From: Moniliella sp. 'wahieum'
Taxonomy: Eukaryota > Basidiomycota > Moniliellomycetes > Moniliellales > Moniliellaceae
Assembly: GCA_003971905.1 (NCBI GenBank)
Contig: RSEE01000171.1
Span: 1-55,478, forward strand
Length of the DNA: 55,478 bases
Direction: 5' to 3'
Shown here: positions 16,661 to 46,752 of the stretch, in pieces
How the letters are laid out: each line of letters begins with the position of its first letter
How positions within the stretch are numbered: position 1 is the first letter of the stretch
The notes under the pieces: model-generated
Database searches by the model: none
What the model saw: only the letters and a program-made list of their open reading frames with translations
Told to the model about the DNA's origin: nothing
Translations under genes and position numbers: made by a program

Positions 16661-16682
16661 TGTCACCTGTCACATGTCACAC
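16661..16682. repeat. GTCAC heptad array
   Basis: GTCAC cores start at 16662, 16669 and 16676 with spacers CT and AT, exactly seven bases apart. Overlapping CACATG and CACCTG E-box-like hexamers are created. Lies about 320 bp upstream of the OYE-like start. Confidence 0.9.
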
Positions 16683-16795
16683 ACCATCATACATCACTTC
16701 GATTTCAAGCTTGACTTGAAGCTTCAGCTTCAGCCCAGCATGATGTCGGAGCCAGCTGTAGGCATGTCAGCAACCACCTCGTGTGCTGCGTACAC

Positions 16796-16816
16796 GTCAC
16801 ATGTCACATGTCACAC
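16796..16816. repeat. GTCAC heptad array
   Basis: GTCAC cores start at 16796, 16803 and 16810, spacers AT and AT. Second array upstream of the OYE-like gene. Confidence 0.9.
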
Positions 16817-17705
16817 CCAGTGTATTCGGTTTGAGGCCAACGGTGTTAGCAGTTTGCCCTGCACTCCACCCTCTGATCTCGAAGAGGCTGGTTGGCGAAC
16901 ACAATGGCTATATACTCCACGGAGTTTAGCAGCAGCAAATCCATTTCCCCTGCTATGACATGTGACTGCGCCGCCTGGGCCTATCGCCGCGCGGTTGTTA
17001 CATGGTACTAATACTCAGGACGGTGCGGAGGTGTTGAACTTGAAAGGGGAGAAATGAGATGTGAGCACGTTCAATTGAACGTCGAGGTCGCCTGCATGCC
17101 GTGCTTAGGGTGCTCTGAGGCCTCACAGTCTTCCTGTCACACTCGGGGCTAAGCCGGGGGGGCCAGAGTCGAAACGAGAGTCGAGACGGGCTAGTCCAAG
17201 GGATACAGCAATCGTCTTCTGCCTGCCTCGCCAAGGTGGGACGGTAGGTCCTGAACCTCAGGACGCAGACCTGAATCGAGCGGGCTGGAAGCAGGGGCAG
17301 GGGTGAGTATCTTAATGAGTGAAATGAGATGCGTGAAATGTCTCTGCGCCGAGGCCGTGGCGCGCATTCTACAGTTGAGAGTAAGTCAGCCTTGTGCTGC
17401 AAACCTGGACATCGCACACGAGTGGTGAGTATGTCCAAAATGTATCCTGAACCGCTATCTGGCTGGGTGCAGTGTTGCCTCTCGGGGTAGTGCGGCGGGC
17501 AAGGGGGGGGTGGCGAAAACGAGACGCATGGCGTGCAGCCGCCAAGCAATTCCAACGATGAACGATGAATGATCCACGATGGACGTTGAACGATAGGTCG
17601 AGTTGTGCGACAAGATCGGTGGGGGGGGGGCGATCGATTGGGGGTAAATTGGATCTCTGTTTGAGAGACCAAAGGAGAACTATGTACCTTGGCTATACAA
17701 GAACG

Positions 17706-18411
17706 TCAAGCTTCAAGTTCAGAGGGCAGGGCAGGGCGCAGCAGGACAGGGCAGGGGGGAGAAGAGATGTGCATGGTCATATTACTTTTTAGCCTTTTTG
17801 AGGAGAACAAAGCCTCCGTCCTAGCCTTTTGGATTTCCCTTGCCAAACGGGAAGCTTCACCAGTAGCTTCAGCAAAGATTTCCGCGTCGCGCTGTGCCTC
17901 GAGACGAGCACGTTGATGGTCCTGCTCGATCTTCTCGATCAAACTCGAAGCTTCCTTCAGACGGCCGGCCAACTTAAGTCGGTCCGCACGCAGCTGCGTC
18001 CGCTCATTCCGCACACGCATGGCTACTCGTAACTGTTCCTGCTCCAACGCCGTCATGTCCATCTTGAGTTGTCGCCGGTGCGCTTCCCGCTCCGCGGCGG
18101 TACCGACAAAGTCGTAGAACCGGAAATACTTGCGCGCCGATAACGGGCGGCACTGTACCGCCTGGATCCGGTCACCAATCTGCAGCTCGTTGAGCTCGTC
18201 GTGCACGAGAAACTTTTTGGTGACCGTGTGTTGCTGTGAGGGAAGGAGGGAGGGGTGAGCATGCCAGACGTGCAACGGAACCAAGGGGAGGAGGGAGGGG
18301 CAGACGGACCTTGGCGTAGAGGTGGTGGAGCATGGTGCGCTCGACGGTCAGGGTGACCGTCTTGTCCATGAAGCCTGCGCGGGTGACGAAGCCTTCGAGG
18401 ATCTGGGGCAT
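17706..18411 (-). CDS. mitochondrial small-subunit ribosomal protein uS17m, two exons
   Basis: Mitochondrial homologue of bacterial ribosomal protein S17, an OB-fold rRNA-binding protein of the mitoribosome small subunit. Exon 1 18411-18310 (34 codons), intron 18309-18234 (76 nt, GT-AG), exon 2 18233-17706. Family features: GFVTRAGFMDKTVTLTVER, then HHLYAK joined to QHTVTKKFLVHDE, and the conserved GDRIQAVQCRPLSARKYFRF (loop plus Pro-Leu-Ser). The C-terminal half is a long charged helix (about residues 90-175), common in fungal mitochondrial versions. The last 25 residues in this frame look unnatural. A second frame in the same place ends GGFVLLKKAKK with a stop near 17785, a more typical basic end, so a one-base error near 17810-17835 is possible. 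Divergently transcribed from the Rrn5-like gene. Confidence 0.85.
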
Positions 18412-18655
18412 GCTGGGCAGAGCGGCTGAGGCGGGCCGATGGTCGTCCCGCCCAGCCGGGCGGCTGCGGCGGCCGCCTGCAAGAAGGTGGGCGCCGCCGG
18501 GCGGAATGATCGACTAGTGTATCAGTCCCAGCCCACGCCCATTCCGCTGTAGGTTGTTTAATTATTAGACAGCGCAACCCAGTGCAAAGAAAGTACCAGT
18601 AGCAGCACAAAGTGTCTCCTCCTCCTCTTCCTCCTCCTTCTCCTCCTCGCCGGCG
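18412..18655. promoter_or_regulatory. divergent promoter between uS17m and Rrn5-like genes
   Basis: The two start codons are 244 bp apart on opposite strands, so both promoters must lie here or overlap the genes. The right end is a CTCCTC-rich pyrimidine tract (18614-18650), a likely leader of the Rrn5-like transcript. No clear TATA box is visible. Confidence 0.6.
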
Positions 18656-22914: not shown

Positions 22915-22942
22915 TGACATGTCACACGTCACGCGTCACATG
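22915..22942. repeat. GTCAC heptad array upstream of TPT transporter
   Basis: GTCAC cores start at 22921, 22928 and 22935 with spacers AC and GC, then AT. An inverted core (GTGAC) lies just before at 22914. Two further GTCAC words at 22893 and 22902 are out of phase. The array ends 233 bp before the transporter ATG. Confidence 0.88.
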
Positions 22943-24270: not shown

Positions 24271-25918
24271 CGGGAACGGAATGCACTGCGTACAACTGAA
24301 CTGGCTTCCCACCTCTCCTCTCCTTCTTCTCCTTCTCCTTGTCCTTTTTCCTCCTAGCAACTTGGCCCTCCAGGCGCACGAAAATCGCTAAACGTAACCG
24401 TGGGTGGGCGATTTCGGTGTCACATGTCACTAGTCACTAGTCACTGGTCACTAATGACTGGCCTGGTTCCCGGTTACCGTTACGCGTTACCGATTACCGG
24501 TTAACAATGTGGGGGACAGGGTCCAGGACACCCACCACCCTACTACACACCGTACTCCCCCGTCCCTATTCTGTCGCTTTTCTTTGTGCTAGCTCCTTCC
24601 CCCACACCCGACTCTATACATCTCCGTCTCCCCCTCCCCCCACTCTATATTCTGGCGTTTTATTCCGGTCGCGAAAGGATTCGTTTTGGAGAGAAATCAT
24701 TACTCAGTGGGATTTCGGAGGTGGGCTTGGGAAATTTGGACGCCGCCAATATTCAATGCCGCCAGGAAATGCGCAACAAGTCTCATCGTGCTGGGCTCAA
24801 GCTTGGGCGCCCCTTGTCAACCAGTGGAAAGGGGCCTGGAGGGGCTAGTGGTTGAACTTGGGGCAACCATTGTCGGCAAGAGGCAAAGTGCGTCATACGT
24901 GTTTTACTTGGGATCGCGCGTAATTCTCTCACCTCCGGCCTCGCTTGCATTGATTGTGGATTGAAGCTTGAAGGGAGCACCCACCCACCTTCAGTGCTAA
25001 GGACTGCTTGAACCACAATTCTCGCATTCCAATTCCCCTCTTCAGTCTTTAGCGAGTAGTCAATGGACCGGTGGGTCTCGACGTATGGCTTGTTTGGGCC
25101 TTAGAACAAGGCACTCTCCGTCAGGCCCCGTCTACCGGACACCCAAGCAGCCATCGGCCATTTCATTCGTCATGCGTCACGGCGACCACAGGAAAATTCG
25201 ATTCCAAGTGAATCGAAGTGCGGAAAGAGGTGTGTTCAGGCCTAAGGTCTCCTCTTAGCTCGTCTCATGCAGTTCCAGTCTTCGACCCAATACCAGCTCC
25301 AACCGACGCCAGACGCTGTCATTTTCCTCCTCGACATAATCCTCTTCGTCTACGTCTACTTCGCATCTTAGTATGAAGGCAATAAATCACTGCCCAACCT
25401 GGTGGGTACGCACTTTTCCGCATCATCAGCTAGGGGCCCCTTCTGACCAACGCCAACAAACCTACTATCATCTGTCTTCTGCCCACTCTATTACGTCAAA
25501 TGTCGTACGAATTCAACGGCGTGCCGTCGAAAGAGAAAGAGGTTGGTACCGAAGACAGTGGCGTCATAACGCGTCATATGCACAGTCCCGAAGAAAACGG
25601 GGGTAGAGGGGATGATGTACTGATAGGTACAAACCCTTAATTCGGGGGTTCGTTTCTCTTTCATGGATCAATCAATGTCCGATTTTAGTCCCAAAAAGCA
25701 AAACGTGGTCGACACAAAGTAAAGTGTGACGAAGAGAAAAAAGGAAAAAGGAAAACAGGGCAGATAGGGGTGGGGGTGGGCAACTGTTGGTGCCGGGGCG
25801 TAATTTAATGGGCAGACGGAGGGAAAGAAAAAAAACAATCGAAAAAAGTGGGGGGGGGTTTCTCCACCGTTGCCCAGATCCGTCGGTTGCTTGTCCGGCT
25901 GGATTTGCAAGGGGACAA
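24271..25918. other. intergenic region with heptad arrays
   Basis: No complete gene. It begins with GTCAC and GTTAC heptads (24419-24504). From about 25100 base composition becomes less GC-rich. On the minus strand 25256-25370 can be read as an acidic peptide ending in a stop (see findings), too short to call a gene. A C/T-poor, A-rich patch lies near 25735-25860, just past the OPT stop. Confidence 0.5.
24419..24504. repeat. GTCAC and GTTAC heptad arrays, back to back
   Basis: Five perfect GTCAC cores start at 24419, 24426, 24433, 24440 and 24447 with spacers AT, TA, TA and TG, followed in phase by ATGAC. After a short gap, GTTAC-type cores start at 24473, 24479, 24486, 24493 (ATTAC) and 24500 (GTTAA); all but the first interval are seven bases. 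The block lies about 150 bp past the transporter stop. Confidence 0.9.
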
Positions 25919-28678
25919 CTAGGTCGAAGAGGTGGGAGGCGCGTTCCTGTGGGGAAACAACGTATCGTTCCAGACCAGAACTTTTTCCATGGTATCGCCG
26001 TAGTCGTTCAGGGGCCCAAGTTTGTCCAGGTGATGATGGAAGCGGGTAAAGCGGGATTTGGTGCCATCTGTACCATACTCCATAGCCGCTATGATGGCTG
26101 TACAAAGCGAACTTCCAACAGAAGCGGCGGCAGAGAGAATGTAATTCATCCTGTTGACAACCAATCCAGAGATTTTGTTAGTGAAGAGAGTTAGCCACAT
26201 TCATCCCTGGAACAATACAAAGGGAAGATAGAATAGTGGACGTACGCAATCCAATAATTCAACTGCCGACGACGGGAGAACAGTAGGTGAGTGAGAGCCC
26301 CCCAGAAAAACCAAGAGGTCCAGCTAATCGCTGCAAAAAGTGCGAATTGCGATATACCACCAAAGAAAAGCGGCCAATGGATCGAGCGGAGGTGAGCAAC
26401 ATGATTCAACTCCGGCGAAATCCGTACGGCAAGGTACAAGAGCAGGGGCGCGACTGCACCAATAAGGAAGAAGTACAGAGTCCATTGGTAGTGGTGCAGG
26501 AACCCGTTCTTCTGAGGCCCGACACCAGTCCAATACATGGGATCGTACAACCCTTCAATCCGCAGTTCGGCTTCTTTGCTGAATTTCAGCTTATCGGAAC
26601 TCCACCCAATCCAGATTCCACTTTGCAATACCGAGCAGACCAATTGTGTTCCCACCAGTACAAAAAAGCTGATCCGTGGCGGGATCTTAAAGTAGACAGC
26701 CAGTTTGGAGCAGCCACAGTAGAGCATGGCTTGTTGGATGGTGCCCGTGCAGCATAGCTGAAAGATCGGAAGGATGGTCGTGTGACCAGGCAGCGCAGCA
26801 CCAGCAATCAAAGTCGCCATGTGCTCGACACACTTCAATTCAACCGAAGTGCGGCCCGCCACAATGCCCACTGGCACAATGAAGATTGCAGCCAGCGCCA
26901 GGGCAAGCACAATCGCCCAAACCGGTACCGAGGTGTGGTACACGTGCACCATGGGGATGGCAAAGGCAAAGGCAACCAGAAGCAAACACAGGTACCACCA
27001 GATGGGAACAGCCGGGTAGCCAGCGAGTTGGCTGGCGTGGGGGTCAGGCGAATCAGCCACTTTGGATACTTTCCACCAGCGGCGGAGGTCACCGCCATGG
27101 AAAAGCGGAGTGTGCACGAGCAAGGCGGTACATGCGGCATAGGAGAACGCCCAAGTGATGACGATTGAGGCGGAAAAGTATCCCTGGGGTGGGTCGGGTG
27201 ACTCAAATTGGGGAGGATCTAGATACATGTCTTGGGGCAAGGGGTTGAAATACATGTTGGTGGTGTTGAGCGGTGGGTACCAAATCACGTCGATAAGGCC
27301 ATAAGGAATGCAGGCTGCTAGGTTCTTGTTGGTGAAAAAGATCGGAACGGCAATGACCCACATGGCAACGACGAAGCCACAAAATACGTTGACCAGCGCG
27401 CCCCGCGGTACAATCAAGGGTGAACTCAAAGCTGCGATCACTAAATTCCAGTCCAGGCACCAAAAAGACCCGCTCATGCCACCCTTTCCATCAAACAATA
27501 GATTGACCCCAAAGCTGGACGGAGAAATCCACGTCGGCCACTCGAATCTTGCCAGAGGCGGATAGAGGAATAGCGGGATCCAGTGCCACACGAAAATGAC
27601 CGTCGCCACAATCCAGAAAACGAGGCGACGGTTCCAGTTGCCACGCCGAACCCCGTGTAACGCCGTCAACATTGCACTGGTCTGAAGTTGCTGCGGGTAT
27701 ATGAGCTTACCAGGCCAAATGAGAAGACGTGTGGCAAGACCTGCCAAGGCAAATCCAAAGAATGGGGTCGAGAGGTAAATTAGAAAAAGGAAGCCGGGCG
27801 GGAATGTGTAAGGTCTTTCTGGGTCACCAGCATTTGTGGCTGCAAACATTCCAGCCAAGTATTGCAAGGTTAAGTTGGGGCCCATGGCGACAGCGACGAT
27901 GGTGCAGATCCTACGAGAGCGACAATCACACCTGTCAGAGGAACTCTCTTACACTGCAATATCAGCATCGGGGGAGGTTGAGACGCACGTATGCTCCTTG
28001 ATATTAAATGGACCTGGGTTATAATGACCAAGCCAGGGGCCATGCGATGGGTACGGGATTTTCGACATGGCGAAACCCACGCAGTAGGCAAACGGCTGCA
28101 CCAACACTGCACTCGTATAAGACCCGAACCTTTGGGTTGGTAGAATCTCCCATTGTGTTCAGTGCATAGACGGCGCTGGTAAGACCGCAAGCCAGCACCA
28201 TGAAAGCAGCCAGGTACGAATGGTGTTGTATGGCATGTTGGGGTCGTCCACGTTTGGAACAATCGCGCGCACGCGCGCATCGGCCAAATCCACCCTCTTC
28301 TCTGCATCGGAATCTTGATCGTCCGCATTATTCTTCTCGCTGTCACCGGAGTGGTCCGATCCCACGTTTTCTGTTGTGGCGCCTCGCGTCCCATGAGGCC
28401 CATCGTGTGCGCTGTGTAGTGGCAAGAGGGGCAAGGGTGTTTTCCAAGAGCGACTCTGTTTCCATCCAATTCTCGTTGTCGTCCTCGGCTGTGGTTGTCA
28501 ACGAAAACGCGGTAGTGTTTTTGTACGTCGCGTGGTTTGTTGATGTTATGCTATCAATTGTGAGAGGCCGAAGAGATTCGATGGGATCCAGCGTGAAGGG
28601 AAGGCCCGAGTCATCGGAATGTGGGTGGGTCTGTTCCTCATCCGCTTCGTTGGGCCCGCTCGAGCGAGGAGTCGACAT
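25919..28678 (-). CDS. OPT-family oligopeptide transporter, copy 1 (3'-complete, exon 1 frame broken)
   Basis: Proton-coupled oligopeptide transporter of the OPT family, plasma membrane. Exon 1 28678-27989, intron 27988-27911, exon 2 27910-26246, intron 26245-26151, exon 3 26150-25919. Exon 1 encodes a hydrophilic Asp/Glu-rich N-tail, then PYNTIRTWLLS (as in OPT proteins) and the conserved NPGPFNIKEHT. Exon 2 carries many membrane segments, YLSTPFFGFALAGL, QLQTSAMLTALHG, TPLFHGGDLRRWW, ELKCVEHMATLIAGAALPGH, the OPT element ISFFVLVGTQLVC, and LYDPMYWTGVGPQ. Exon 3 gives NYILSAAASVG and the cytosolic end. Compared with copy 3, exon 1 has net 5 nt missing through several 1-2 nt indels (for example near 28128, 28201 and 28435), so this copy is not translatable as written. 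Exons 2 and 3 are open. A full-length product would be about 863 aa. Confidence 0.85.
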
Positions 28679-31168
28679 GATGCCTAGCCTTTTGTTTTAC
28701 TTGTGTCGCGACGATGTTAGTGTTCAGTGTTATTGTTGTTGTTGTTGTTGTTGGTGGTGGGGGTGGTGGTGGGGGTGGTATAGTGAATCACAGTCATTGT
28801 GAGTTGAGCTTCCATTTATACTATCAGGGGTCGTCGTCCCAACTCCGTTCCGACTCGCAGGTCATGAAGTGCTCCCTTCCTCGCTCTCCCGCTCATATCA
28901 TGCTCTTTTGTGCGCTAGGGCCTGGAGACGATTAACACCAACGAATCCCGTCAGCTCCACCAAAGGAACGCGCTACCTATAGCCGAAGAAGCGCACAACC
29001 TCAGCAAAGCGTGTTGGTACGGTAGCTCCCTCCTCACCTTAGTAGTATACTATGTTATCGATTATCCCCACCTCTTCACCTAAGCGTTAGCTTTATATAG
29101 ACTACATAACCCCTGTTGCATTTGCTCCGACCGACGCGGATCTAAACCACCTCAAGTGAATACCGTATACATCCAAAGCGGATAGGGATAAATTGACACT
29201 GCGCTCTATATATAGATACGCTGCTTGTGAGATGAATCAGTTCCGAACTTTATAGCTTGTTACGAGTCACACGGGTCACTGCGGGATAGCTCGCCTAAAT
29301 ACCCCATCTACTGCGTTGCGCCTACACGGAGCTTAGCTTCATTCGATTTGGGCGATGTCCAAGCTCGAGTCTTTTCTGTACGGCTGAGGAGATCCGCGCG
29401 TGAAGCTCTGAGTCCCTCCTGGTTTTAAACTTTATTCCTATACACTGCACCATATCATTGACAGAGCTTAAGGCTGGGACAGGGAAACGCTACGCCTAAA
29501 CCGACCCGTTCATCATGCGTGTGTTGCTTGGTAGCGCCACACCTGTTAATGAACCAGGGGGATTGCCAGGATATGAGGTCCCTCTGGTGCCCGCCATCCG
29601 TTCCCATACCCTAGGAAGAGCGTGTGGACATGGATGAACGTGGTAGACTTCTGAGCGAGAAACCATTTCCATTGAGACACAGTAGCCAAATCCTTCCAGT
29701 GCGCGACGATCTTGCCCGCCGTCTTGGTGCCGTAGTATCCTCGCGTCTTCAAAACCAAGGGGAAAAACGGCTCTTGAGTGCGTCCCTGGTACTTGGCGTT
29801 GTTGTCGCATTCTTCTTGTTCCAGCAGCCGAAGCAGCTCCTTCCCCCAGCGTTTCAAGGGCGCACATAGTTCCGAGTCAGCACTCCTGGGGGCGAGCTAG
29901 CTTTTCCAAGAGACAGAGATTGGATTCAGAGTATGTCTGCTCCTAGATCCACATCTCATACTCTAGGCAGTTGCAACCGCGCGGTGCCAGTGTCCTGACG
30001 CTCCGGCGTGGCGTGGCCATGCATAAGGAGGGACCTGCGTTGGCCCCACCCCATCGAGACAACCGGGGCTGAGCGGGCGCCAAGTTGCGTCTCCAAGTTT
30101 ATTTGAATACGCAGCGCATCGTATATATTGGGTAGCGCACTACTGCGCTTGCCCAACAATACTTTATTCGCACATCAGAGGCCCCAGGAAGGCTATTAAG
30201 GACTGGAATGGAACTGTGGCGCGCCGGCTGCAATCAGAGTTCGGAGAATGCGGACCAGGGAGCGACAGTGAAGCTAGTGACCCGGGAGCGGGGGATGAAT
30301 CCCGTGTGCAATGGTCCAGCCGACGGCTCCAAGCGAGAAAAGAGTCGAGGCAGAGCGAAAACAGGAGTGTAACCAGTTGCGCCTCACACACGGGGTTGGT
30401 GCGGCAGACGCTTACAGCAGGGGGGCTGTGTCTAGGAAGCTTTTCTCCCACAGTACCCCGCCGTCTGCCCTAGTGCGGGATCCCGTGTGGGGTAGGGTTA
30501 CATGTGCGCAGCGACAAAAACGCCCACATGCATTATGAGGAAGCTTTTTACCCTACAAAAAGCAATCGTGAAGCCGTCAGGAATCGTATAACAGCGTGCG
30601 AATCATGAACATGTGTCAGACCTTCTCCTTTGGATTGTGGAGCATGTGAAGGTTAAGAGCTTCACCGGCTTCAAGCTTCAAGCTTCACCCAGCTTCACCG
30701 GGGTGAGAAGGGCCCGGCATGTGTATATGACCGGATGACCCCTTGTCATGCATGATGGCCCCTTCTCCACAGCTGACCTTGGCAGTGGGGTTCATATATA
30801 TCTCAAGTATGCCCCGAGCTGTTAGAAGCTTGTAACTAGAACCTTCTGAACACTCAACCAACACTCAACCAACACTCAACACTGAACTCAGTACTCAACG
30901 TTCAACCTTCAACAGCTTCAACCTTCAAGGTATACTCAACAACCACACCCCATTGGATTGTTTGGTGTTGGATGATTGATTTACTCGGATCTGCTGCCTC
31001 ATTCTTCCTGTAGCTTGCTCCTATATATGTGGATCCGCTCCCGCGACTGCGCCCACACCCTGTGGTCCGCTTTCACAAACTCATACTCCGAACGAGGTAG
31101 TGGATCAATGATATAGTGATCCATCAATCATAGTCTCAGCGCGGGTAAATATCTATACTGCATGCATA
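28679..31168. other. intergenic part of array unit 1
   Basis: Lower in GC than the flanks. It starts with the GTT/GGT repeat in the presumed OPT leader (28734-28780). The middle contains a LINE-like fragment (listed). At 30668-30688 are GCTTCAA/GCTTCAC heptads, and at 30851-30930 a series of ACTCAA and TTCAA words spaced 11 or 7 bp. No complete gene seen. The same content recurs at 33255-35744 and in part at 37833-39010. Confidence 0.6.
29546..29857 (-). pseudogene. LINE-like ORF2 C-terminal fragment (tentative), copy 1
   Basis: A 103-codon open frame containing LLRLLEQEECDNNAKYQGR, then FFPLVLKTRGYYGTKTAGK and HWKDLATVSQWKWF. The pattern (basic/acidic spacer ending in a Lys-Tyr, then F-x-P-L-V-L-x-T-x-G) recalls the region after reverse transcriptase in many LINE ORF2 proteins. 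No reverse transcriptase or endonuclease domain is present, so at best this is a 5'-truncated remnant. The name is inference. Confidence 0.35.
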
Positions 31169-33254
31169 TCATAGACAGAGATTACGCTGGGACGAAGAGG
31201 CACAGCGCCTATCAGTCGCTCGCCCATACGGCATGTGGGGGTCGCATTCCTGTTTGGTTCGAGCCCCGATTGTCCCATCACCTGAAAGACGAAAATGAGG
31301 CAACGCAATGGCAGGGGATTTGAGTACATGCCCTAACTGACCCCGGACGCCCGGCAAAAAGAAAAGAACGCATAGAGAAGCAAACAAGTGCTCCACACAC
31401 TTCAGCTCCACCGAAGTCCGGCCCACCACAATGCCCACTGGAACAATGAAGATTGCCGCGAGCAAGAGGGCAAGCACAATCGCCCAAACCGGTACCGAGG
31501 TGTGGTACACGTGCACCATGGGGATGGCAAATACAAACGCAACCAGTAGCAAGCAGAGGTACCACCAGGTGGGAACAGCCGGATAGCGGGCGAGTTGGCG
31601 AGTGTGTGGGTCAGGAGAATCAGCAACATTGGGCACTCTCCACCAGCGACGTAGGTCGCCGCCATGGAAAAGCGGAGTATGCACGACTAAGGCGGTGCAA
31701 GCAGCATAGGAAAACGCCCAGGTCATGACACTTGTGGCAGAAAAGTATCCCTGGGGTGGGTGGGGCGAATCAAATTGGGGGGGATCTAGATACGCGTCTT
31801 GGGGCAAGGGATTGAACTGTATGTTGGCGTAACTCATCTGTGGGTGCCAAACCACGTCGGTAAAGTGATAGGGAAGGCAGGCCGCTAGGCTTTTGTTGGT
31901 GAAAAAGATCGGGAGGGCAATGACCCACATGGCAACGGCGAAGCCACAAAACACATTGACCAGCGCGCCCCACGGTACGATCAAGGGTGAGCCCAACGCT
32001 ACCGTTACCAGCGTCCAGTCGAGGCACCAAAAGGACCAGCCCATGCCCTCATTTCCGTCAAACAATAGATTCACCACAAAGCTTGAGGGAGGAATCCACG
32101 TCGGCCACTCGAACTTTGCCAGAGGTGGATAGAAGAGCAGGCGGACCCAGTGCCAGACAAACACAATCATCGCCCCAATCCAGAAAACGCGGCGACGGGA
32201 CCAATTGCTACGCCGTACACCATGCAACGCAGTCAACATCGCACCGGTCTGAAGCTGCTGAGGGTTTAGGAGCTCGCCAGGCCAAATGAGAAGACGTCTG
32301 GCAAGACCGGCGAAGGCAAATCCAAAGAATGGGGTTGAGAGGTAAATGAGAAAGAGGAAGCCGGTTGGGTACTTATGTTTATTGTCTGCGCCCAACACAG
32401 GGTCGGAGTTCAACTCGGGGACCAAGTACTGCAGGGTTAGGTTGGGTCCCATGGCGACAGCAGCGACGATGGTGCAGATCCTACGAGAGCGACAATCACA
32501 CCTGTCAGAGGGAACTCTCTTACACTGCAAATATCAGCATCGGGGGGAGGTTGAGACGCACGTATGCTCCTTGATATTAAATGGACCTGGGTTAATGAAC
32601 CAAGCCAGGGGCCAATGCGATGGGTACGGGATTTTCGACATGGCGAAACCCACGCAGTAGGCAAACGGCTGCACCAACACTGCACTCGTATAAGACCCGA
32701 AAACCTTTGGGTTGGTAGAATCTCCCATTGTGTTCAGTGCATAGACGGCGCTGGTAAGACCGCAAGCCAGCACCAGTGAAAGCAGCCAGGTACGAATGGT
32801 GTTGTATGGCATGTTGGGGTCGTCCACGTTTGGAACAATCGCGCGCACGCGCGCATCGGCCAAATCCACCCTCTTCTCTGCATCGGAATCTTGATCGTCC
32901 GCATTATTCTTCTCGCTGTCACCGGAGTGGTCCGATCCCACGTTTTCTGTTGTGGCGCCTCGCGTCCCATGAGGCCCATCGTGTGCGCTGTGTAGTGGCA
33001 AGAGGGGATCAAGGGTGTTTTCCAAGAGCGACTCTGTTTCCATCCAATTCTCGTTGTCGTCCTCGGCTGTGGTTGTCAACGAAAACGCGGTAGTGTTTTT
33101 GTACGTCGCGGTTTGTTGATGTTATGCTATCAATTGTGAGAGGCCGAAGAGATTCGATGGGATCCAGCGTGAAGGGAAGGCCCGAGTCATCGGAATGTGG
33201 GTGGGTCTGTTCCTCATCCGCTTCGTTGGGCCCGCTCGAGCGAGGAGTCGACAT
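31169..33254 (-). pseudogene. OPT-family transporter, copy 2 (3'-truncated, exon 1 frame broken)
   Basis: Exon 1 33254-32562, intron 32561-32481, exon 2 from 32480. The protein follows OPT copy 1 through PNLTLQYL, YLSTPFFGFAFAGL and TPLFHGGDLRRWW to SVELKCVEH, then homology stops at about 31386. Seventy-odd unrelated residues follow to a stop at 31169. The last third of the transporter, including the later membrane segments, is missing. Exon 1 has a 2-nt deletion near 33110 relative to copies 1 and 3, so the frame does not reach exon 2 intact. Almost certainly non-functional if the sequence is right. Confidence 0.85.
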
Positions 33255-35744
33255 GATGCCTAGCCTTTTGTTTTACTTGTGTCGCGACGATGTTAGTGTT
33301 CAGTGTTATTGTTGTTGTTGTTGTTGTGGTGGTGGGGTGGTGGTGGGGGTGGTATAGTGAATCACAGTCATTGTGAGTTGAGCTTCCATTTATACTATCA
33401 GGGGTCGTCGTCCCAACTCCGTTCCGACTCGCAGGTCATGAAGTGCTCCCTTCCTCGCTCTCCCGCTCATATCATGCTCTTTTGTGCGCTAGGGCCTGGA
33501 GACGATTAACACCAACGAATCCCGTCAGCTCCACCAAAGGAACGCGCTACCTATAGCCGAAGAAGCGCACAACCTCAGCAAAGCGTGTTGGTACGGTAGC
33601 TCCCTCCTCACCTTAGTAGTATACTATGTTATCGATTATCCCCACCTCTTCACCTAAGCGTTAGCTTTATATAGACTACATAACCCCTGTTGCATTTGCT
33701 CCGACCGACGCGGATCTAAACCACCTCAAGTGAATACCGTATACATCCAAAGCGGATAGGGATAAATTGACACTGCGCTCTATATATAGATACGCTGCTT
33801 GTGAGATGAATCAGTTCCGAACTTTATAGCTTGTTACGAGTCACACGGGTCACTGCGGGATAGCTCGCCTAAATACCCCATCTACTGCGTTGCGCCTACA
33901 CGGAGCTTAGCTTCATTCGATTTGGGCGATGTCCAAGCTCGAGTCTTTTCTGTACGGCTGAGGAGATCCGCGCGTGAAGCTCTGAGTCCCTCCTGGTTTT
34001 AAACTTTATTCCTATACACTGCACCATATCATTGACAGAGCTTAAGGCTGGGACAGGGAAACGCTACGCCTAAACCGACCCGTTCATCATGCGTGTGTTG
34101 CTTGGTAGCGCCACACCTGTTAATGAACCAGGGGGATTGCCAGGATATGAGGTCCCTCTGGTGCCCGCCATCCGTTCCCATACCCTAGGAAGAGCGTGTG
34201 GACATGGATGAACGTGGTAGACTTCTGAGCGAGAAACCATTTCCATTGAGACACAGTAGCCAAATCCTTCCAGTGCGCGACGATCTTGCCCGCCGTCTTG
34301 GTGCCGTAGTATCCTCGCGTCTTCAAAACCAAGGGGAAAAACGGCTCTTGAGTGCGTCCCTGGTACTTGGCGTTGTTGTCGCATTCTTCTTGTTCCAGCA
34401 GCCGAAGCAGCTCCTTCCCCCAGCGTTTCAAGGGCGCACATAGTTCCGAGTCAGCACTCCTGGGGGCGAGCTAGCTTTTCCAAGAGACAGAGATTGGATT
34501 CAGAGTATGTCTGCTCCTAGATCCACATCTCATACTCTAGGCAGTTGCAACCGCGCGGTGCCAGTGTCCTGACGCTCCGGCGTGGCGTGGCCATGCATAA
34601 GGAGGGACCTGCGTTGGCCCCACCCCATCGAGACAACCGGGGCTGAGCGGGCGCCAAGTTGCGTCTCCAAGTTTATTTGAATACGCAGCGCATCGTATAT
34701 ATTGGGTAGCGCACTACTGCGCTTGCCCAACAATACTTTATTCGCACATCAGAGGCCCCAGGAAGGCTATTAAGGACTGGAATGGAACTGTGGCGCGCCG
34801 GCTGCAATCAGAGTTCGGAGAATGCGGACCAGGGAGCGACAGTGAAGCTAGTGACCCGGGAGCGGGGGATGAATCCCGTGTGCAATGGTCCAGCCGACGG
34901 CTCCAAGCGAGAAAAGAGTCGAGGCAGAGCGAAAACAGGAGTGTAACCAGTTGCGCCTCACACACGGGGTTGGTGCGGCAGACGCTTACAGCAGGGGGGC
35001 TGTGTCTAGGAAGCTTTTCTCCCACAGTACCCCGCCGTCTGCCCTAGTGCGGGATCCCGTGTGGGGTAGGGTTACATGTGCGCAGCGACAAAAACGCCCA
35101 CATGCATTATGAGGAAGCTTTTTACCCTACAAAAAGCAATCGTGAAGCCGTCAGGAATCGTATAACAGCGTGCGAATCATGAACATGTGTCAGACCTTCT
35201 CCTTTGGATTGTGGAGCATGTGAAGGTTAAGAGCTTCACCGGCTTCAAGCTTCAAGCTTCACCCAGCTTCACCGGGGTGAGAAGGGCCCGGCATGTGTAT
35301 ATGACCGGATGACCCCTTGTCATGCATGATGGCCCCTTCTCCACAGCTGACCTTGGCAGTGGGGTTCATATATATATCTCAAGTATGCCCCGAGCTGTTA
35401 GAAGCTTGTAACTAGAACCTTCTGAACACTCAACCAACACTCAACCAACACTCAACACTGAACTCAGTACTCAACGTTCAACCTTCAACAGCTTCAACCT
35501 TCAAGGTATACTCAACAACCACACCCCATTGGATTGTTTGGTGTTGGATGATTGATTTACTCGGATCTGCTGCCTCATTCTTCCTGTAGCTTGCTCCTAT
35601 ATATGTGGATCCGCTCCCGCGACTGCGCCCACACCCTGTGGTCCGCTTTCACAAACTCATACTCCGAACGAGGTAGTGGATCAATGATATAGTGATCCAT
35701 CAATCATAGTCTCAGCGCGGGTAAATATCTATACTGCATGCATA
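33255..35744. other. intergenic part of array unit 2
   Basis: Near-identical repeat of 28679-31168, shifted by about 4574-4576 bp. It contains the microsatellite leader (shortened by 2-3 bases), the LINE-like fragment copy 2, and the GCTTCAA and ACTCAA arrays. Confidence 0.85.
34120..34431 (-). pseudogene. LINE-like ORF2 C-terminal fragment (tentative), copy 2
   Basis: Identical in translation to the fragment at 29546-29857 and in the same relative position in the unit. Its upstream end abuts the point where units 1 and 2 differ from unit 3 (34434, corresponding to 39010). Confidence 0.35.
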
Positions 35745-37832
35745 TCATAGACAGAGATTACGCTGGGACGAAGAGGCACAGCGCCTATCAGTCGCTCGCC
35801 CATACGGCATGTGGGGGTCGCATTCCTGTTTGGTTCGAGCCCCGATTGTCCCATCACCTGAAAGACGAAAATGAGGCAACGCAATGGCAGGGGATTTGAG
35901 TACATGCCCTAACTGACCCCGGACGCCCGGCAAAAAGAAAAGAACGCATAGAGAAGCAAACAAGTGCTCCACACACTTCAGCTCCACCGAAGTCCGGCCC
36001 ACCACAATGCCCACTGGAACAATGAAGATTGCCGCGAGCAAGAGGGCAAGCACAATCGCCCAAACCGGTACCGAGGTGTGGTACACGTGCACCATGGGGA
36101 TGGCAAATACAAACGCAACCAGTAGCAAGCAGAGGTACCACCAGGTGGGAACAGCCGGATAGCGGGCGAGTTGGCGAGTGTGTGGGTCAGGAGAATCAGC
36201 AACATTGGGCACTCTCCACCAGCGACGTAGGTCGCCGCCATGGAAAAGCGGAGTATGCACGACTAAGGCGGTGCAAGCAGCATAGGAAAACGCCCAGGTC
36301 ATGACACTTGTGGCAGAAAAGTATCCCTGGGGTGGGTGGGGCGAATCAAATTGGGGGGGATCTAGATACGCGTCTTGGGGCAAGGGATTGAACTGTATGT
36401 TGGCGTAACTCATCTGTGGGTGCCAAACCACGTCGGTAAAGTGATAGGGAAGGCAGGCCGCTAGGCTTTTGTTGGTGAAAAAGATCGGGAGGGCAATGAC
36501 CCACATGGCAACGGCGAAGCCACAAAACACATTGACCAGCGCGCCCCACGGTACGATCAAGGGTGAGCCCAACGCTACCGTTACCAGCGTCCAGTCGAGG
36601 CACCAAAAGGACCAGCCCATGCCCTCATTTCCGTCAAACAATAGATTCACCACAAAGCTTGAGGGAGGAATCCACGTCGGCCACTCGAACTTTGCCAGAG
36701 GTGGATAGAAGAGCAGGCGGACCCAGTGCCAGACAAACACAATCATCGCCCCAATCCAGAAAACGCGGCGACGGGACCAATTGCTACGCCGTACACCATG
36801 CAACGCAGTCAACATCGCACCGGTCTGAAGCTGCTGAGGGTTTAGGAGCTCGCCAGGCCAAATGAGAAGACGTCTGGCAAGACCGGCGAAGGCAAATCCA
36901 AAGAATGGGGTTGAGAGGTAAATGAGAAAGAGGAAGCCGGTTGGGTACTTATGTTTATTGTCTGCGCCCAACACAGGGTCGGAGTTCAACTCGGGGACCA
37001 AGTACTGCAGGGTTAGGTTGGGTCCCATGGCGACAGCAGCGACGATGGTGCAGATCCTACGAGAGCGACAATCACACCTGTCAGAGGGAACTCTCTTACA
37101 CTGCAAATATCAGCATCGGGGGGAGGTTGAGACGCACGTATGCTCCTTGATATTAAATGGACCTGGGTTAATGAACCAAGCCAGGGGCCAATGCGATGGG
37201 TACGGGATTTTCGACATGGCGAAACCCACGCAGTAGGCAAACGGCTGCACCAACACTGCACTCGTATAAGACCCGAAAACCTTTGGGTTGGTAGAATCTC
37301 CCATTGTGTTCAGTGCATAGACGGCGCTGGTAAGACCGCAAGCCAGCACCAGTGAAAGCAGCCAGGTACGAATGGTGTTGTATGGCATGTTGGGGTCGTC
37401 CACGTTTGGAACAATCGCGCGCACGCGCGCATCGGCCAAATCCACCCTCTTCTCTGCATCGGAATCTTGATCGTCCGCATTATTCTTCTCGCTGTCACCG
37501 GAGTGGTCCGATCCCACGTTTTCTGTTGTGGCGCCTCGCGTCCCATGAGGCCCATCGTGTGCGCTGTGTAGTGGCAAGAGGGGATCAAGGGTGTTTTCCA
37601 AGAGCGACTCTGTTTCCATCCAATTCTCGTTGTCGTCCTCGGCTGTGGTTGTCAACGAAAACGCGGTAGTGTTTTTGTACGTCGCGTGGTTTGTTGATGT
37701 TATGCTATCAATTGTGAGAGGCCGAAGAGATTCGATGGGATCCAGCGTGAAGGGAAGGCCCGAGTCATCGGAATGTGGGTGGGTCTGTTCCTCATCCGCT
37801 TCGTTGGGCCCGCTCGAGCGAGGAGTCGACAT
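35745..37832 (-). pseudogene. OPT-family transporter, copy 3 (open frame but 3'-truncated)
   Basis: Exon 1 37832-37138 (695 nt), intron 37137-37057 (81 nt), exon 2 37056-35745. This is the only copy in which exon 1 is in frame and joins exon 2 cleanly, giving 668 codons. The reading frame stays open across the truncation point after SVELKCVEH and ends in about 70 residues unrelated to the family. A transporter without its last third is unlikely to work, but a stable chimeric membrane protein could be made. Exon 2 is essentially identical to copy 2 and clearly different from copy 1. Confidence 0.85.
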
Positions 37833-38699
37833 GATGCCTAGCCTTTTGTTTTACTTGTGTCGCGACGATGTTAGTGTTCAGTGTTATTGTTGTTGTTGTT
37901 GTTGTTGGTGGTGGGGGTGGTGGTGGGGGTGGTATAGTGAATCACAGTCATTGTGAGTTGAGCTTCCATTTATACTATCAGGGGTCGTCGTCCCAACTCC
38001 GTTCCGACTCGCAGGTCATGAAGTGCTCCCTTCCTCGCTCTCCCGCTCATATCATGCTCTTTTGTGCGCTAGGGCCTGGAGACGATTAACACCAACGAAT
38101 CCCGTCAGCTCCACCAAAGGAACGCGCTACCTATAGCCGAAGAAGCGCACAACCTCAGCAAAGCGTGTTGGTACGGTAGCTCCCTCCTCACCTTAGTAGT
38201 ATACTATGTTATCGATTATCCCCACCTCTTCACCTAAGCGTTAGCTTTATATAGACTACATAACCCCTGTTGCATTTGCTCCGACCGACGCGGATCTAAA
38301 CCACCTCAAGTGAATACCGTATACATCCAAAGCGGATAGGGATAAATTGACACTGCGCTCTATATATAGATACGCTGCTTGTGAGATGAATCAGTTCCGA
38401 ACTTTATAGCTTGTTACGAGTCACACGGGTCACTGCGGGATAGCTCGCCTAAATACCCCATCTACTGCGTTGCGCCTACACGGAGCTTAGCTTCATTCGA
38501 TTTGGGCGATGTCCAAGCTCGAGTCTTTTCTGTACGGCTGAGGAGATCCGCGCGTGAAGCTCTGAGTCCCTCCTGGTTTTAAACTTTATTCCTATACACT
38601 GCACCATATCATTGACAGAGCTTAAGGCTGGGACAGGGAAACGCTACGCCTAAACCGACCCGTTCATCATGCGTGTGTTGCTTGGTAGCGCCACACCTG

Positions 38700-39164
38700 T
38701 TAATGAACCAGGGGGATTGCCAGGATATGAGGTCCCTCTGGTGCCCGCCATCCGTTCCCATACCCTAGGAAGAGCGTGTGGACATGGATGAACGTGGTAG
38801 ACTTCTGAGCGAGAAACCATTTCCATTGAGACACAGTAGCCAAATCCTTCCAGTGCGCGACGATCTTGCCCGCCGTCTTGGTGCCGTAGTATCCTCGCGT
38901 CTTCAAAACCAAGGGGAAAAACGGCTCTTGAGTGCGTCCCTGGTACTTGGCGTTGTTGTCGCATTCTTCTTGTTCCAGCAGCCGAAGCAGCTCCTTCCCC
39001 CAGCGTTTCAAAGGCGTCGCGGTACTCTCATGCACCACCCTCCGGTTCGCGCCCTGCGCCTCCTGCGTTCCCGTGTCGCGCAGCGTGTGGTCCACCTCTA
39101 ATTCTGATCCTCCGATTGCCCCGGGCCCCATCACGCGGTAGTTAACCCTAACCCAGGATGCCAA
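38700..39164 (-). pseudogene. LINE-like ORF2 C-terminal fragment (tentative), copy 3, longer at its 5' end
   Basis: Same fragment as at 29546 and 34120, but the open frame extends about 50 codons further upstream into unique DNA, reading LEVDHTLRDTGTQEAQGAN and PLKRWGKELLRLL. The extension joins smoothly to the conserved part. This suggests copy 3 keeps the older junction and that copies 1 and 2 were cut at the array breakpoint. Still lacks any catalytic domain. Confidence 0.4.
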
Positions 39165-39400
39165 TCGGGTTGGGCATGTCCATCCAGATGGGGAGATAGA
39201 TCGTCATTCCCCTCGTCTGGGAGGTTGACTAGTGACCGTGTGGTTTTTGGTGTGGCCCTTTAGCCTCGCGTGCCGACGCGACGCGGTCGCGTAGCGTCGC
39301 GTCCCGCGATATCTGATACCCAGTAAACTAGCAGCAATTCCGCGCTGAGGCACGGGGCCGCACTAAGCCGCGTCGTCGCGTGGCAGCGCGGGCCACGCGG

Positions 39401-39440
39401 ACGCGTCTTTTTTAGTCCCGCGTCACTCGTCACGCGTCAC
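39401..39440. promoter_or_regulatory. two MCB-type elements (ACGCGT) upstream of RNR2
   Basis: Perfect ACGCGT hexamers lie at 39401-39406 and 39432-39437, about 275-310 bp before the RNR2 ATG. ACGCGT is the known MBF binding site that drives G1/S expression of DNA-synthesis genes in fungi, including ribonucleotide reductase. The second site lies inside a GTCAC heptad array (cores at 39422, 39429 and 39436, spacers TC and GC). Confidence 0.7.
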
Positions 39441-40990: not shown

Positions 40991-41843
40991 ACGACAAAAG
41001 TGCCGTGGGGTATCGTGTCGTGTGCGTGCACTGCGCTCTCTTCTGTCTCTGTCTGTCTGTCTGTCTCTCTGTCTGTGTATCTTGGGTTTTGCTATTAGTA
41101 TTTGGTACACTCTTGTGGCTGGGGTAGACATGGTGTCTGGTCGTGGTCGTAGGGGTAGGGTGTTCGCGGCAGCGACGGGGGTGGGTGGTGGTTCCACCCA
41201 GTAGCCACTGGGGCTGTGGAGGACGTGGCGAGGAAGACGGATGGAGCGATGGCCGGCTCCATCGGGCGGGGGAGATGTGGTTGAAGATAGAAGATTGAGG
41301 AGGATGAGGATGGAGGAGGAGAGGAGGGAGGGAGGATGGAGGAGGGGCGGGATGAGTAGGATGGTGTTGAGATAAGAGGATTGGAGATAGAGGTGACCGG
41401 TTGAAGATAGAGGCGAAGACAGAGGTGAAGCTTGCAGAGGGCCAGGTGGAAACGCAGATGTGAAATGTGCAATCTCTGAGACGATCTGCGATCTGGGCAA
41501 GAAGGACTGAGGCGAGGCGGTGAGTGGGACACTGGCCCTGTGCTGGATCGGCTGGCAATCGGCGCGAGGCGCTGTGGTGCGCCGGCCGTGGCGTGGCCGG
41601 TGACTGACGCATGACTAGTGACTAGTGGCTGCACTCGTGCCGGTGCCAAGCAATGCATTGCATCATGCATGATGCATGATGCCTGGTGATTAAAATCATC
41701 CGCCCTCAGATTCAGACGCAGCCCAGACGGGACGCTTCTTGGGGCGCAGCAGACAGCCGCTGGGGGGACACTTTGATCTTGTCCTTCCCGTGTTCCTCTC
41801 GTCCTCCATCTCTGCCTCTCTGCCTCCACCCCCCCCTCCCTCC
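40991..41843. other. intergenic region between RNR2 and Xpt1-like gene
   Basis: No gene supported. The long minus-strand frames here are His/Pro/Ser-rich shadows of GGAGGA/GATGGA repeats (41220-41420). A CTGTCTGT run is at 41044-41076. An inverted GTCAC array (GTGAC cores, 7-bp period) lies at 41600-41629, and the 18-mer CATGCATGATGCATGATG is at 41664-41681. Confidence 0.55.
41600..41629. repeat. inverted GTCAC heptad array (GTGAC on plus strand)
   Basis: GTGAC at 41600, ATGAC at 41611, GTGAC at 41618 and GTGGC at 41625, the last three exactly seven bases apart with TA spacers. Lies about 220 bp upstream of the putative Xpt1-like start. Confidence 0.75.
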
Positions 41844-45504: not shown

Positions 45505-46195
45505 ACGCCCACACCCACACCCACGTCTACGCCCGCGGCAGCCTCGCCCCACCCAACCTAGGACGAGGGACCACACGCTCTCTTCTGTTCTGTTTTGTTC
45601 TATTCTGTTCTGTTTTGCCTCTGTCGCGTTGAGGTCGGATGGGGTCCGACCGGGTCCAAGCTGGGTAACCTTGGGCTCAAGCTACGTTAGCAACCTACAC
45701 TGCACTCCCTCCTTCCATCTGTTTTTACCTTGTGCGTTGCCTGTGTGTGCTCTGTGCGGAAGCTGTGCGCGTTCCGCCCATGGCTGGGGCCACGGCGTGT
45801 ACAAACAAACGCATTCGTTCGTCCTGCCTGCTTCACGTTCACGTTCATGTTTGCGTTCTTGTTCTTGTTCTGGTTTTGTTCTGGGTTTGTTCTTATTCTT
45901 GTCCATGATGGTATTGTTTGGATGGGAAGCAGGGGCGGTGGTTGGGTAGGAAGGGGTTGGTGGAGGGGGGGGAGGGTACGAGCCACACCTGGGTCGTCGT
46001 ATGTGCGACTCCTGGAGGGCGGAAGAGATACGTGCAGGATTATCGGTGAGAGGGCTGGGGTCGAGGGTCGAGGCTAGACCGGGTAGACAGAGACATGCTA
46101 CTGTGGGTCACGGTAGCTAGTAGGTAGCCACAGACGGTCGTTTTGCTTTTTTTTCGTCTATACTTGTGCCAGACCAACAGTGACCGGGACCACGT

Positions 46196-46300
46196 GGAGT
46201 AGTGACGCAGCGGTTAGCGTGTGAGATTGCAATTGTGCCCCACGCCTGTGTGGGCAGGTGCTTCATCTTGAAGTCGTTGGTTCAAGTCCGACCTACTCCT
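46196..46300 (+). tRNA. tRNA-Cys(GCA) with 32-nt intron
   Basis: The acceptor stem GGAGTAG (46196-46202) pairs perfectly with CTACTCC (46293-46299). The D-stem is ACGC/GCGT with loop AGCGGTTA. The anticodon stem TGAGA pairs with TCTTG (two G-T pairs). The anticodon loop TTGCAA gives GCA at 46229-46231. The T-arm is GTTGG, loop TTCAAGT, CCGAC. The discriminator base is T (46300), the U73 identity base of tRNA-Cys. The intron is at the usual position after base 37, 46233-46264. Confidence 0.93.
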
Positions 46301-46303
46301 GTC

Positions 46304-46310
46304 TTTTTTT
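46304..46310 (+). terminator. RNA polymerase III terminator
   Basis: A run of seven T begins four bases after the end of the tRNA-Cys coding sequence, the usual Pol III stop signal. Confidence 0.85.
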
Positions 46311-46520
46311 CTGTTTGACGGGCCGAGCGGGAGGGAATGTGGAGCAGGAGGGAATGTAGAGCAGGAGGTCACGTGGGTCGTGTGACGGTGAGATTGAGAT
46401 GTGAGATGGATGAGCAGATGCTGGCAGCTGCTGGATGCGGAATGGGTGGGGTGCTACTTCGGGTATATACGCAAGGGGGTGCGCGTGGCTGGCATGCCCA
46501 AGTGCAAGGGGGGCTGCGAG

Positions 46521-46570
46521 GAGCACAGGCCAGCACAGGCCAGCACAGGCCAGCACAGGCCAGCACAGGC
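46521..46570. repeat. 10-bp tandem repeat CAGCACAGGC, five units
   Basis: Five consecutive units; the first is GAGCACAGGC and the rest are CAGCACAGGC. No coding role is apparent. Confidence 0.9.
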
Positions 46571-46600
46571 TCGGATTGTGCGTCGGCAGGCGGAGTGTGT

Positions 46601-46626
46601 GTCGCATGTCACATGTCACATGTCAA
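46601..46626. repeat. GTCAC heptad array
   Basis: Cores GTCGC, GTCAC, GTCAC and GTCAA start at 46601, 46608, 46615 and 46622, all with AT spacers. Confidence 0.9.
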
Positions 46627-46705
46627 TCCCCGCCGCCGCCATGCCGTATGCAGAAACCATCATCGATCATGCGTCGTTTGTCGCCACGCACCCTGCCGCT
46701 GTGGT

Positions 46706-46752
46706 GTCACATGTCACATGTCACATGTCACATGCCCCACGTCACCTGTCAG
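46706..46752. repeat. GTCAC heptad array with a skipped unit
   Basis: GTCAC starts at 46706, 46713, 46720, 46727 and 46741, then GTCAG at 46748. The 14-bp step between 46727 and 46741 keeps the 7-bp phase, as if one unit had decayed. Lies about 515 bp upstream of the Msb2-like start. Confidence 0.9.

What the first reader, a model, noticed from the sequence alone, without database searches (positions are those of the whole stretch)
16661..46752. GTCAC heptad arrays: a fixed 5-bp core repeated at an exact 7-bp step near several unrelated genes
At eight or more places GTCAC (or GTGAC) cores recur every 7 bp while the two spacer bases vary (AT, CT, AC, GC, TA, TC, TG): 8949, 16662, 16796, 22921, 24419, 39422, 41600 (inverted), 46601 and 46706. 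At 46727-46741 a decayed unit is skipped but the phase is kept. They lie a few hundred bp upstream of OYE, the TPT transporter, RNR2, the Xpt1-like gene and Msb2. Conserved core plus phase with free spacers is what selection on a binding array, or a copying mechanism with 7-bp steps, would leave. I know of no described element of this form.
Basis: seen in the sequence. Interest (0 to 1): 0.75.

Follow-up and report, generated by a model that had tools for sequence, protein, structure and literature searches.

The report
Self-mirrored 7-bp insertions at TNA
The repeated GTCAC stretches belong to a larger set of seven-letter repeats in this fungal genome, each made of T-any letter-A plus a four-letter palindrome that usually mirrors the neighbouring bases, which looks like the mark of a precise DNA-copying or breakage process rather than a protein-binding array.

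Summary
The arrays are real: GTCACNNGTCACNNGTCAC occurs 2246 times in the 69.5-Mb genome, the reversed pattern 33 times. But GTCAC is only a slice. The unit is T-N-A plus a self-complementary tetramer, step 7 bp, N kept constant. In a 303-kb sample TNA-w-TNA occurs 265 times, against 10.3 in Markov resamples; ANT, GNC and CNG do not show it. The tetramer usually mirrors the dinucleotide beside TNA (yxTNA -> yxTNA.x'y'yx.TNA): in the 26 loci outside the window 246 of 334 step-7 5-mer repeats have the mirrored filler, against 14 of 454 in controls. Of 13 mixed arrays, 8 mirror the left flank in their first tetramer and the right flank in their last. Against a homologous contig, units are present or absent in 7-, 14- and 21-bp steps. 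Best reading: a recurrent, flank-templated 7-bp insertion at TNA, extended by repetition or slippage; not a binding array. The enzyme, the break or fork, and the direction of individual changes are not shown. The host is probably an Exobasidiomycetes-like fungus.

The parts
8949..8959 (+). GTCAC-TA-GTCA: one TCA-CTAG-TCA unit (second core decayed to GTCAG)
16541..16548 (+). site with a single TCA where C82 carries TCA-TTAA-TCA (7 bp), TT being the reverse complement of the flanking AA
16662..16680 (+). GTCAC x3 (spacers CT, AT); this stretch does not align with the homologous contig C82
16796..16814 (+). GTCAC x3, tetramer CATG; C82 is 14 bp shorter here, with one TCA
22921..22939 (+). GTCAC x3 (tetramers CACG, CGCG), preceded by an inverted pair TGA-CATG-TCA; 7 bp shorter in C82
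24419..24451 (+). GTCAC x5: CATG, CTAG, CTAG, CTGG; the first tetramer reads CTAG in C82 (two positions differ, palindrome kept)
24480..24503 (+). TTA array: CGCG, CCGA, CCGG; partly inside a 27-bp segment absent from C82
30671..30687 (+). TCA-AGCT-TCA-AGCT-TCA; same in the tandem copy at 35245
30888..30904 (+). mixed array ac-TCA-GTAC-TCA-ACGT-TCA-ac: first tetramer mirrors the left flank, last mirrors the right; same in the copy at 35464
39226..39235 (+). TGA-CTAG-TGA; C82 is 7 bp shorter here
39307..39320 (+). site lacking 14 bp (TAA-TCGA units) that C82 carries
39422..39440 (+). GTCAC x3 (spacers TC, GC); alignment with C82 is gapped here and C82 is shorter
41612..41621 (+).
41670..41679 (+). 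TGA-TGCA-TGA; the array is 7 bp longer in C82
46609..46625 (+). TCA-CATG-TCA-CATG-TCA, same in C82
46706..46745 (+). GTCAC x4 with CATG, a decayed unit at 46734, then GTCAC in phase; C82 is 21 bp shorter here
53076..53106 (+). TCA array GTAC, AGCT, ACCT, AGCT

Best explanation
The GTCAC arrays are one subset of a genome-wide set of 7-bp units, T-N-A followed by a self-complementary tetramer. Units were made by a local, self-templated insertion at a TNA triplet: the two bases beside TNA are copied as their reverse complement and TNA is repeated, so yxTNA becomes yxTNA-x'y'yx-TNA, or the mirror event from the other side. I think the most likely step is hairpin or snap-back (P-nucleotide-like) synthesis at a break or stalled end centred on TNA, followed by joining. 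Repeated rounds at the edges would give mixed arrays; slippage between identical units would give uniform ones. Shown: the sequence rule, its restriction to TNA and period 7, the mirroring of the flank in most units, and whole-unit length differences between homologous contigs. Inferred: that insertion rather than loss made the differences, that a break or hairpin is involved, and that an enzyme chooses TNA.
For: TCA-w-TCA 211 against 12.6 expected and TAA-w-TAA 54 against 3.5; the next pairs are mixed forms of the same triplet (TGA-TCA 26 against 3.7, TCA-TGA 30 against 6.7, TCA-TCG 31 against 7.5; reads over both strands), and the best unrelated identical pair is CAT-CAT, 36 against 20.1. 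265 pairs against 10.3 +- 2.9 in 20 Markov resamples. For TCA, palindromic spacers of 2 bases are 34 against 34.9 and of 6 bases 6 against 4.0. In the 26 non-window loci (248 kb) the filler of step-7 5-mer repeats is mirrored in 246 of 334 for TNA, 3 of 110 ANT, 2 of 180 GNC, 9 of 164 CNG; positions of one array count separately. Single units: 145 of 181 match a flank on at least one side (about 12% expected by chance); mixed arrays 12 of 13, 8 on both sides. The 100 rows listed, all on contig C1: 195 of 300 tetramers palindromic, 20 rows with two or more different ones. Homologous contig (93.2% identity over 10,710 aligned bases): 10 of 88 length differences of 2 bp or more span a TNA-w-TNA, 7 of these 10 having lengths 7, 14 or 21.
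Against: Direction is unknown without an outgroup: a unit could be lost between its 5-bp repeats. 36 of 181 single units match neither flank. Plain 7-bp duplications are not enriched at TNA (46 reads against 56, 88, 58 for ANT, GNC, CNG), which sits badly with ordinary imprecise end joining. Snap-back needs only complementary bases, yet GNC, CNG and ANT show nothing, so pairing alone cannot be the whole story. Even where the tetramer is not palindromic, 10 of 252 TNA pairs are flanked symmetrically around each TNA (0 of 222, 6 of 664, 0 of 495 in controls), which the simple event does not predict. Four of nine 7-bp differences span an exact unit, two more look like decayed ones, three do not fit. 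One genome, 0.44% of it sampled, at fixed coordinates.
Confidence: 0.6

Rival explanations
1. Excision footprints of a cut-and-paste transposon with a TNA-centred target: hairpinned flanks are opened off-centre and rejoined with palindromic P nucleotides, leaving a 7-bp scar; repeated visits to the same TNA build arrays.
For: [quoted passage not shown] Fixed length, a symmetric TNA centre and mirroring of one flank fit a recombinase geometry. Inverted-N pairs are also enriched; 22 of 58 both-strand reads of palindromic inverted pairs match a flank.
Against: No terminal-inverted-repeat element with TNA or 7-bp duplications stood out in 303 kb; TNA was the commonest flank only for inverted repeats up to 30 bp, which I ascribe, untested, to the arrays. 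PF05699 (hAT): no match, but the control genomes rang nowhere, so this shows nothing; no other transposase family was searched. Ac/Ds footprints vary; here plain and one-base-P forms are not enriched. About 60,000 scars by extrapolation would need very heavy activity.
Confidence: 0.2
2. Ordinary heptanucleotide microsatellites: replication slippage expands chance seeds, and hairpin-prone units expand best.
For: 26 of 39 multi-unit arrays are uniform; length differs by whole units between homologous contigs.
Against: Does not explain the restriction to TNA, one-sided flank mirroring in single units, or mixed arrays whose ends each mirror their own flank. Prevotella heptad arrays mostly lack the rule.
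Confidence: 0.12
3. Selected binding arrays for a protein that recognises phased GTCAC.
For: A weak, unnormalised lean to the upstream side of ORFs; GTCAC is the top step-7 core in the window; some arrays are the same in both homologous contigs.
Against: Tetramers of many letters are accepted if self-complementary; cores TTCAA, ATCAT, CTCAG behave alike. Other arrays differ between homologous contigs.
Confidence: 0.05
4. Selected nucleic-acid structure: tandem hairpins in DNA or RNA with TNA loops.
For: Units are quasi-palindromic about N and palindromic about the tetramer. For 5-base arms TCA is the commonest 3-base loop, 69 of 480, though I ascribe that, untested, to the arrays.
Against: In mixed arrays neighbouring tetramers differ and cannot pair with each other. 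For non-palindromic 4-base arms TCA is not among the 12 commonest loops.
Confidence: 0.03

Closest known systems
Quasipalindrome (template-switch) mutagenesis (recalled; abstracts in the listing)
   Same: Short inverted copies templated by neighbouring sequence
   Different: Here a strict form (2-base arms, 7-bp net insertion), a TNA centre is required and TNA is repeated in direct orientation
hAT-type excision footprints with P nucleotides (Ac/Ds; PMC5873905, passages)
   Same: Short palindromic additions at a rejoined site
   Different: One main outcome instead of a spread; no transposon found; arrays of several units
Heptanucleotide microsatellites (bacterial examples in the listings; Prevotella arrays)
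   Same: Tandem units of 7 bp with variable copy number
   Different: Unit is TNA plus a palindrome, and units within one array may differ in letters
Transposon targets with a T-N-A centre (Tn10 NGCTNAGCN; PIF/Harbinger TNA duplications; both recalled, from no call)
   Same: Symmetric odd-length target with T and A around a free base
   Different: No element seen at the sites
Palindromic microsatellite repeats of Fusarium mitochondria (PMC7218506; abstract and passages)
   Same: Short palindromic units that are optional between close genomes
   Different: A-run/T-run palindromes in mitochondria; no 7-bp step or TNA rule in what I saw

Membership tests
Transcription-factor binding array | Fixed core letters, spacers free | tested here: not met
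   Core is TNA with a self-complementary tetramer of many kinds; spacers are not free
Transcription-factor binding array | Sites conserved between homologous regions | tested here: inconclusive
   Many units differ in 7-, 14-, 21-bp steps or are absent from one contig; several arrays are the same in both, e.g. 46609 and 41612
Transcription-factor binding array | A protein binds the array | not testable with these tools
   Needs DAP-seq or similar
Excision footprint of a DNA transposon | Repeated target with palindromic P nucleotides at the joint | tested here: met
   yxTNA-x'y'-yxTNA form
Excision footprint of a DNA transposon | A spread of outcomes, plain duplications included | tested here: not met
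   Plain 7-bp duplications and one-base-P forms are not enriched at TNA
Excision footprint of a DNA transposon | A resident element with that target duplication | tested here: inconclusive
   None stood out in 303 kb; the PF05699 search was uninformative; other families not searched
Slippage microsatellite | Identical units, whole-unit length variation | tested here: inconclusive
   26 uniform and 13 mixed multi-unit arrays; whole-unit differences
Quasipalindrome template switching | Insert is a reverse-complement copy of adjacent bases | tested here: met
   246 of 334 fillers mirrored
Quasipalindrome template switching | Independent of the letters at the centre | tested here: not met
   Restricted to TNA; GNC, CNG and ANT near background

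The most novel reading that the evidence does not exclude
A dedicated enzyme (a domesticated or resident transposase- or recombinase-like nuclease) acts at TNA with a fixed geometry across the surrounding seven bases and its ends are closed by a precise hairpin step, so that tens of thousands of self-mirrored 7-bp scars now lie in the genome of this fungus: a new kind of programmed or selfish micro-insertion.
Probability: 0.25. Interest if true: 0.88.

Novelty: new variant of a known kind. Interest (0 to 1): 0.72.

Why it matters
Short insertions are usually treated as noise of slippage or imprecise end joining. Here one insertion type follows a strict rule (where, how long, and largely which letters) and is common: about 0.9 per kb in the sample, and present at 10 of 88 length differences in the homologous stretches compared. 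That makes the mechanism testable, because the product itself says which bases were copied, from which side and at which triplet. If an enzyme is behind it, it would be a new source of tandem repeats; if it is a replication or repair habit, it is an unusually clean signature of snap-back synthesis in a fungus.

Tried and rejected
GTCAC as the core: rejected, because TTCAA, ATCAT, CTCAG and other heptads follow the same rule.

Transposon remains in which the tetramer is the ends of an element's inverted repeats: rejected in that simple form, because the tetramer mirrors the flank. Search for inverted-repeat elements with TNA or 7-bp duplications: nothing stood out. PF05699 search: no match, uninformative. 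Two adjacent palindromic tetramers between TNAs, predicted if both hairpin overhangs were kept: 10 both-strand reads against 1.4 expected, but by eye the examples did not show the predicted flanks.

Hairpin with TCA loop and arbitrary 4-base arms: TCA not among the 12 commonest loops. Near-identical contigs C105 and C187: differences mostly of one or two bases and no unit differences at the arrays; between about 47068 and 47240 C187 differs more and by eye resembles C82 there. In-window 4.6-kb tandem copies: no unit differences; the third copy is truncated. Scans for two 24-mers: 20 stretches in genome contigs, 11 and 1 in viral contigs; some Streptomyces arrays are mixed and palindromic by eye. 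Six of those genomes were searched with the four-TCA pattern: forward + reverse against reversed control 4/0, 8/0, 50/24, 121/131, 42/12, 17/26, so some bacteria have an excess of TCA heptads too, at 0.5 to 35 per Mb against 93 per Mb here; in the two Prevotella genomes the rows that I counted lack the palindrome rule. Literature: eight searches listed nothing that I recognised as such arrays from titles and abstract beginnings; the library is open-access only; I read passages of two papers.

Full report
What was checked. The window is contig C171 of a 69.5-Mb, 223-contig assembly. The OYE gene beside the first arrays (PF00724) has its nearest named relatives in Parajaminaea, Microstroma, Sympodiomycopsis and Tilletia, so the host is probably an Exobasidiomycetes-like fungus; I could not name it. 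Genome-wide the three-core pattern occurs 1200 + 1046 times, against 11 + 22 for the reversed pattern.

The rule. The sample is 303,478 bases: the window plus 26 stretches (L009-L034) taken at fixed coordinates from 26 contigs. Of 210 period-7 arrays, 51.9% have units that are quasi-palindromes with one central mismatch, against 10.4% of all possible units; period 5 shows no such excess (16.9% against 26.9%), and for period 9 (9.1%) the background was not computed. The 14 most frequent period-7 units all read T-N-A plus a self-complementary tetramer. Taking every trimer, TCA-N4-TCA has a palindromic tetramer 211 times against 12.6 expected from the non-palindromic pairs, TAA-N4-TAA 54 against 3.5. 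Next come mixed forms of the same triplet (TGA-TCA 26 against 3.7; TCA-TGA 30 against 6.7; TCA-TCG 31 against 7.5; reads over both strands); the best unrelated identical pair, CAT-CAT, has 36 against 20.1. Since TCA/TGA and TAA/TTA are strand partners, the rule is T-N-A with N usually kept the same. Twenty Markov-1 resamples of the sample give 10.3 +- 2.9, maximum 16, against 265. For TCA, palindromic spacers of 2 or 6 bases show no excess; of 8 bases there are 3 against 0.6.

Genome-wide confirmation. TCA-N4 repeated to four TCAs occurs 3108 + 3340 times against 578 + 620 for the reversed (ACT) pattern; the TAA version 463 + 489 against 198 + 193. In the 100 rows listed, all on contig C1, 195 of 300 tetramers are palindromic, 10 rows have none, and 20 rows contain two or more different palindromic tetramers, such as CATG, CTAG and TGCA in one array. 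Extrapolating 265 per 303 kb gives about 60,000 units in the assembly; this is an estimate, and the sample includes the window's own tandem copies.

The tetramer mirrors its neighbours. Aligning the window with a homologous contig (C82) suggested that the tetramer is made from the dinucleotide beside TNA; I then tested this. In single units the flank matches the half-tetramer on at least one side in 145 of 181 (about 12% expected by chance), in uniform arrays 25 of 26, in mixed arrays 12 of 13 with 8 on both sides; 36, 1 and 1 match neither. Counted the other way, for 5-mer repeats yxTNA-N2-yxTNA or the mirror form in the 26 loci outside the window, the two-base filler is the reverse complement of yx in 246 of 334; for ANT 3 of 110, GNC 2 of 180, CNG 9 of 164 (positions within one array count separately). 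A unit can thus be written yxTNA -> yxTNA-x'y'yx-TNA. The rate per 5-mer differs by dinucleotide: CT, AG, TG, GA highest, TA and TT zero. Not predicted by the simple event: among 252 TNA pairs with a non-palindromic tetramer, 10 are flanked symmetrically around each TNA, against 0 of 222, 6 of 664 and 0 of 495 for ANT, GNC, CNG.

Turnover. Over 10,710 aligned bases (93.2% identical in aligned columns) window and C82 show 88 length differences of two bases or more, of which 10 span a TNA-w-TNA in the longer sequence: at 16548 (TTAA, in C82), 16804 (two CATG units, in the window), 17086 (ACGT, C82, 8 bp), 39231 (CTAG, window), 39315 (two TCGA units, C82), 41658 (TGCA, C82), 24701 (GTAC, C82), and within 46726 (21 bp, window), 24467 (27 bp, window) and 39206 (13 bp, C82). 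Of the nine differences of exactly 7 bp, four span an exact unit, 16770 and 22921 look like decayed ones, and 45617, 46907 and 41794 do not fit. At 24420 the first tetramer is CATG in the window and CTAG in C82, a difference at two positions that keeps the palindrome. Some arrays are the same in both, such as 46609 and 41612. Which state is older cannot be told from two sequences.

Where they lie. Density is 0.26 per kb inside ORFs of 200 codons or more and 1.46 outside; but non-palindromic TNA-N4-TNA pairs also go from 0.40 to 1.24, so most of the contrast is base composition, with some extra depletion of the units. The upstream lean is weak and unnormalised (76 against 59, 49 against 27, 23 against 17 for three ORF cut-offs).

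Controls elsewhere. In 50 kb of E. coli 7 of 49 TNA-N4-TNA pairs are palindromic against 265 of 517 here; 7 is above the roughly 3 expected. With the four-TCA pattern, six prokaryote genomes chosen because they contain a CATG array gave 4, 8, 50, 121, 42 and 17 matches against 0, 0, 24, 131, 12 and 26 for the reversed pattern, so an excess of TCA heptads is not unique to this fungus, though the density is (93 per Mb here, at most about 35 there). In two Prevotella genomes the first 20 listed rows of each have 2 palindromic tetramers of 120; later rows of both include the CATG arrays by which they were found. In two Streptomyces genomes all 12 rows have 12 of 36, and by eye two Streptomyces loci (L044, L051) have mixed CGCG/CATG arrays, so sporadic similar arrays exist in bacteria; whether they share a cause is open.

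How it most likely works. The product is a direct repeat of TNA with a short inverted copy of one flank between. That is what hairpin or snap-back synthesis at a break or stalled end could leave, and it resembles the P nucleotides at Ac/Ds excision sites in Candida (PMC5873905, passages). Two features argue for more than ordinary repair: the use of TNA alone, although GNC or CNG would pair better, and the narrow outcome, since plain 7-bp duplications are not enriched at TNA (46 both-strand reads of 1034 pairs, against 56 of 458, 88 of 1380 and 58 of 1056 for ANT, GNC, CNG). A TNA-centred enzyme with fixed geometry would explain both, but no candidate element was found, and the one transposase family searched gave an uninformative answer. 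I therefore hold the flank-templated insertion as likely and its enzyme as unknown.

Verdict. Observation confirmed; binding-array reading not supported; copying in 7-bp steps supported and made precise. Eight searches of an open-access library listed no description that I recognised, which does not prove absence from print.

Noticed in passing
window 26818-39016: A unit of about 4.6 kb in two full and one truncated tandem copy (93-97% identical), carrying OPT-transporter ORFs. Beyond it, 38900-39143 matches dozens of places in the genome at about 86-91% identity (only the best 40 of 454 candidates were scored).
   Followed up: partly
window 5389-8768: 1.69-kb tandem duplication, 99.8% identical.
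   Followed up: no
C82, C105, C185, C187 against the window: Parts of the window recur as near-identical contigs (C185, C105, C187) and as a diverged homolog (C82); the first look like unmerged copies with sequencing noise, the second like another haplotype or a homeolog.
   Followed up: partly
window 46522-46570: Perfect 10-bp tandem repeat AGCACAGGCC, about five copies; 10 bp longer in C82.
   Followed up: no
L016:4484-4924: Nested terminal inverted repeats (16 of 16 bases match) with short direct repeats, a possible foldback or MITE.
   Followed up: no
L045, L047, L056, L058, L063 (Prevotella RUI067) and L044, L049, L051, L054, L061 (Streptomyces): CATG heptad arrays in several bacteria; in Prevotella RUI067 some share the same left flank, like a dispersed element.
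   Followed up: partly
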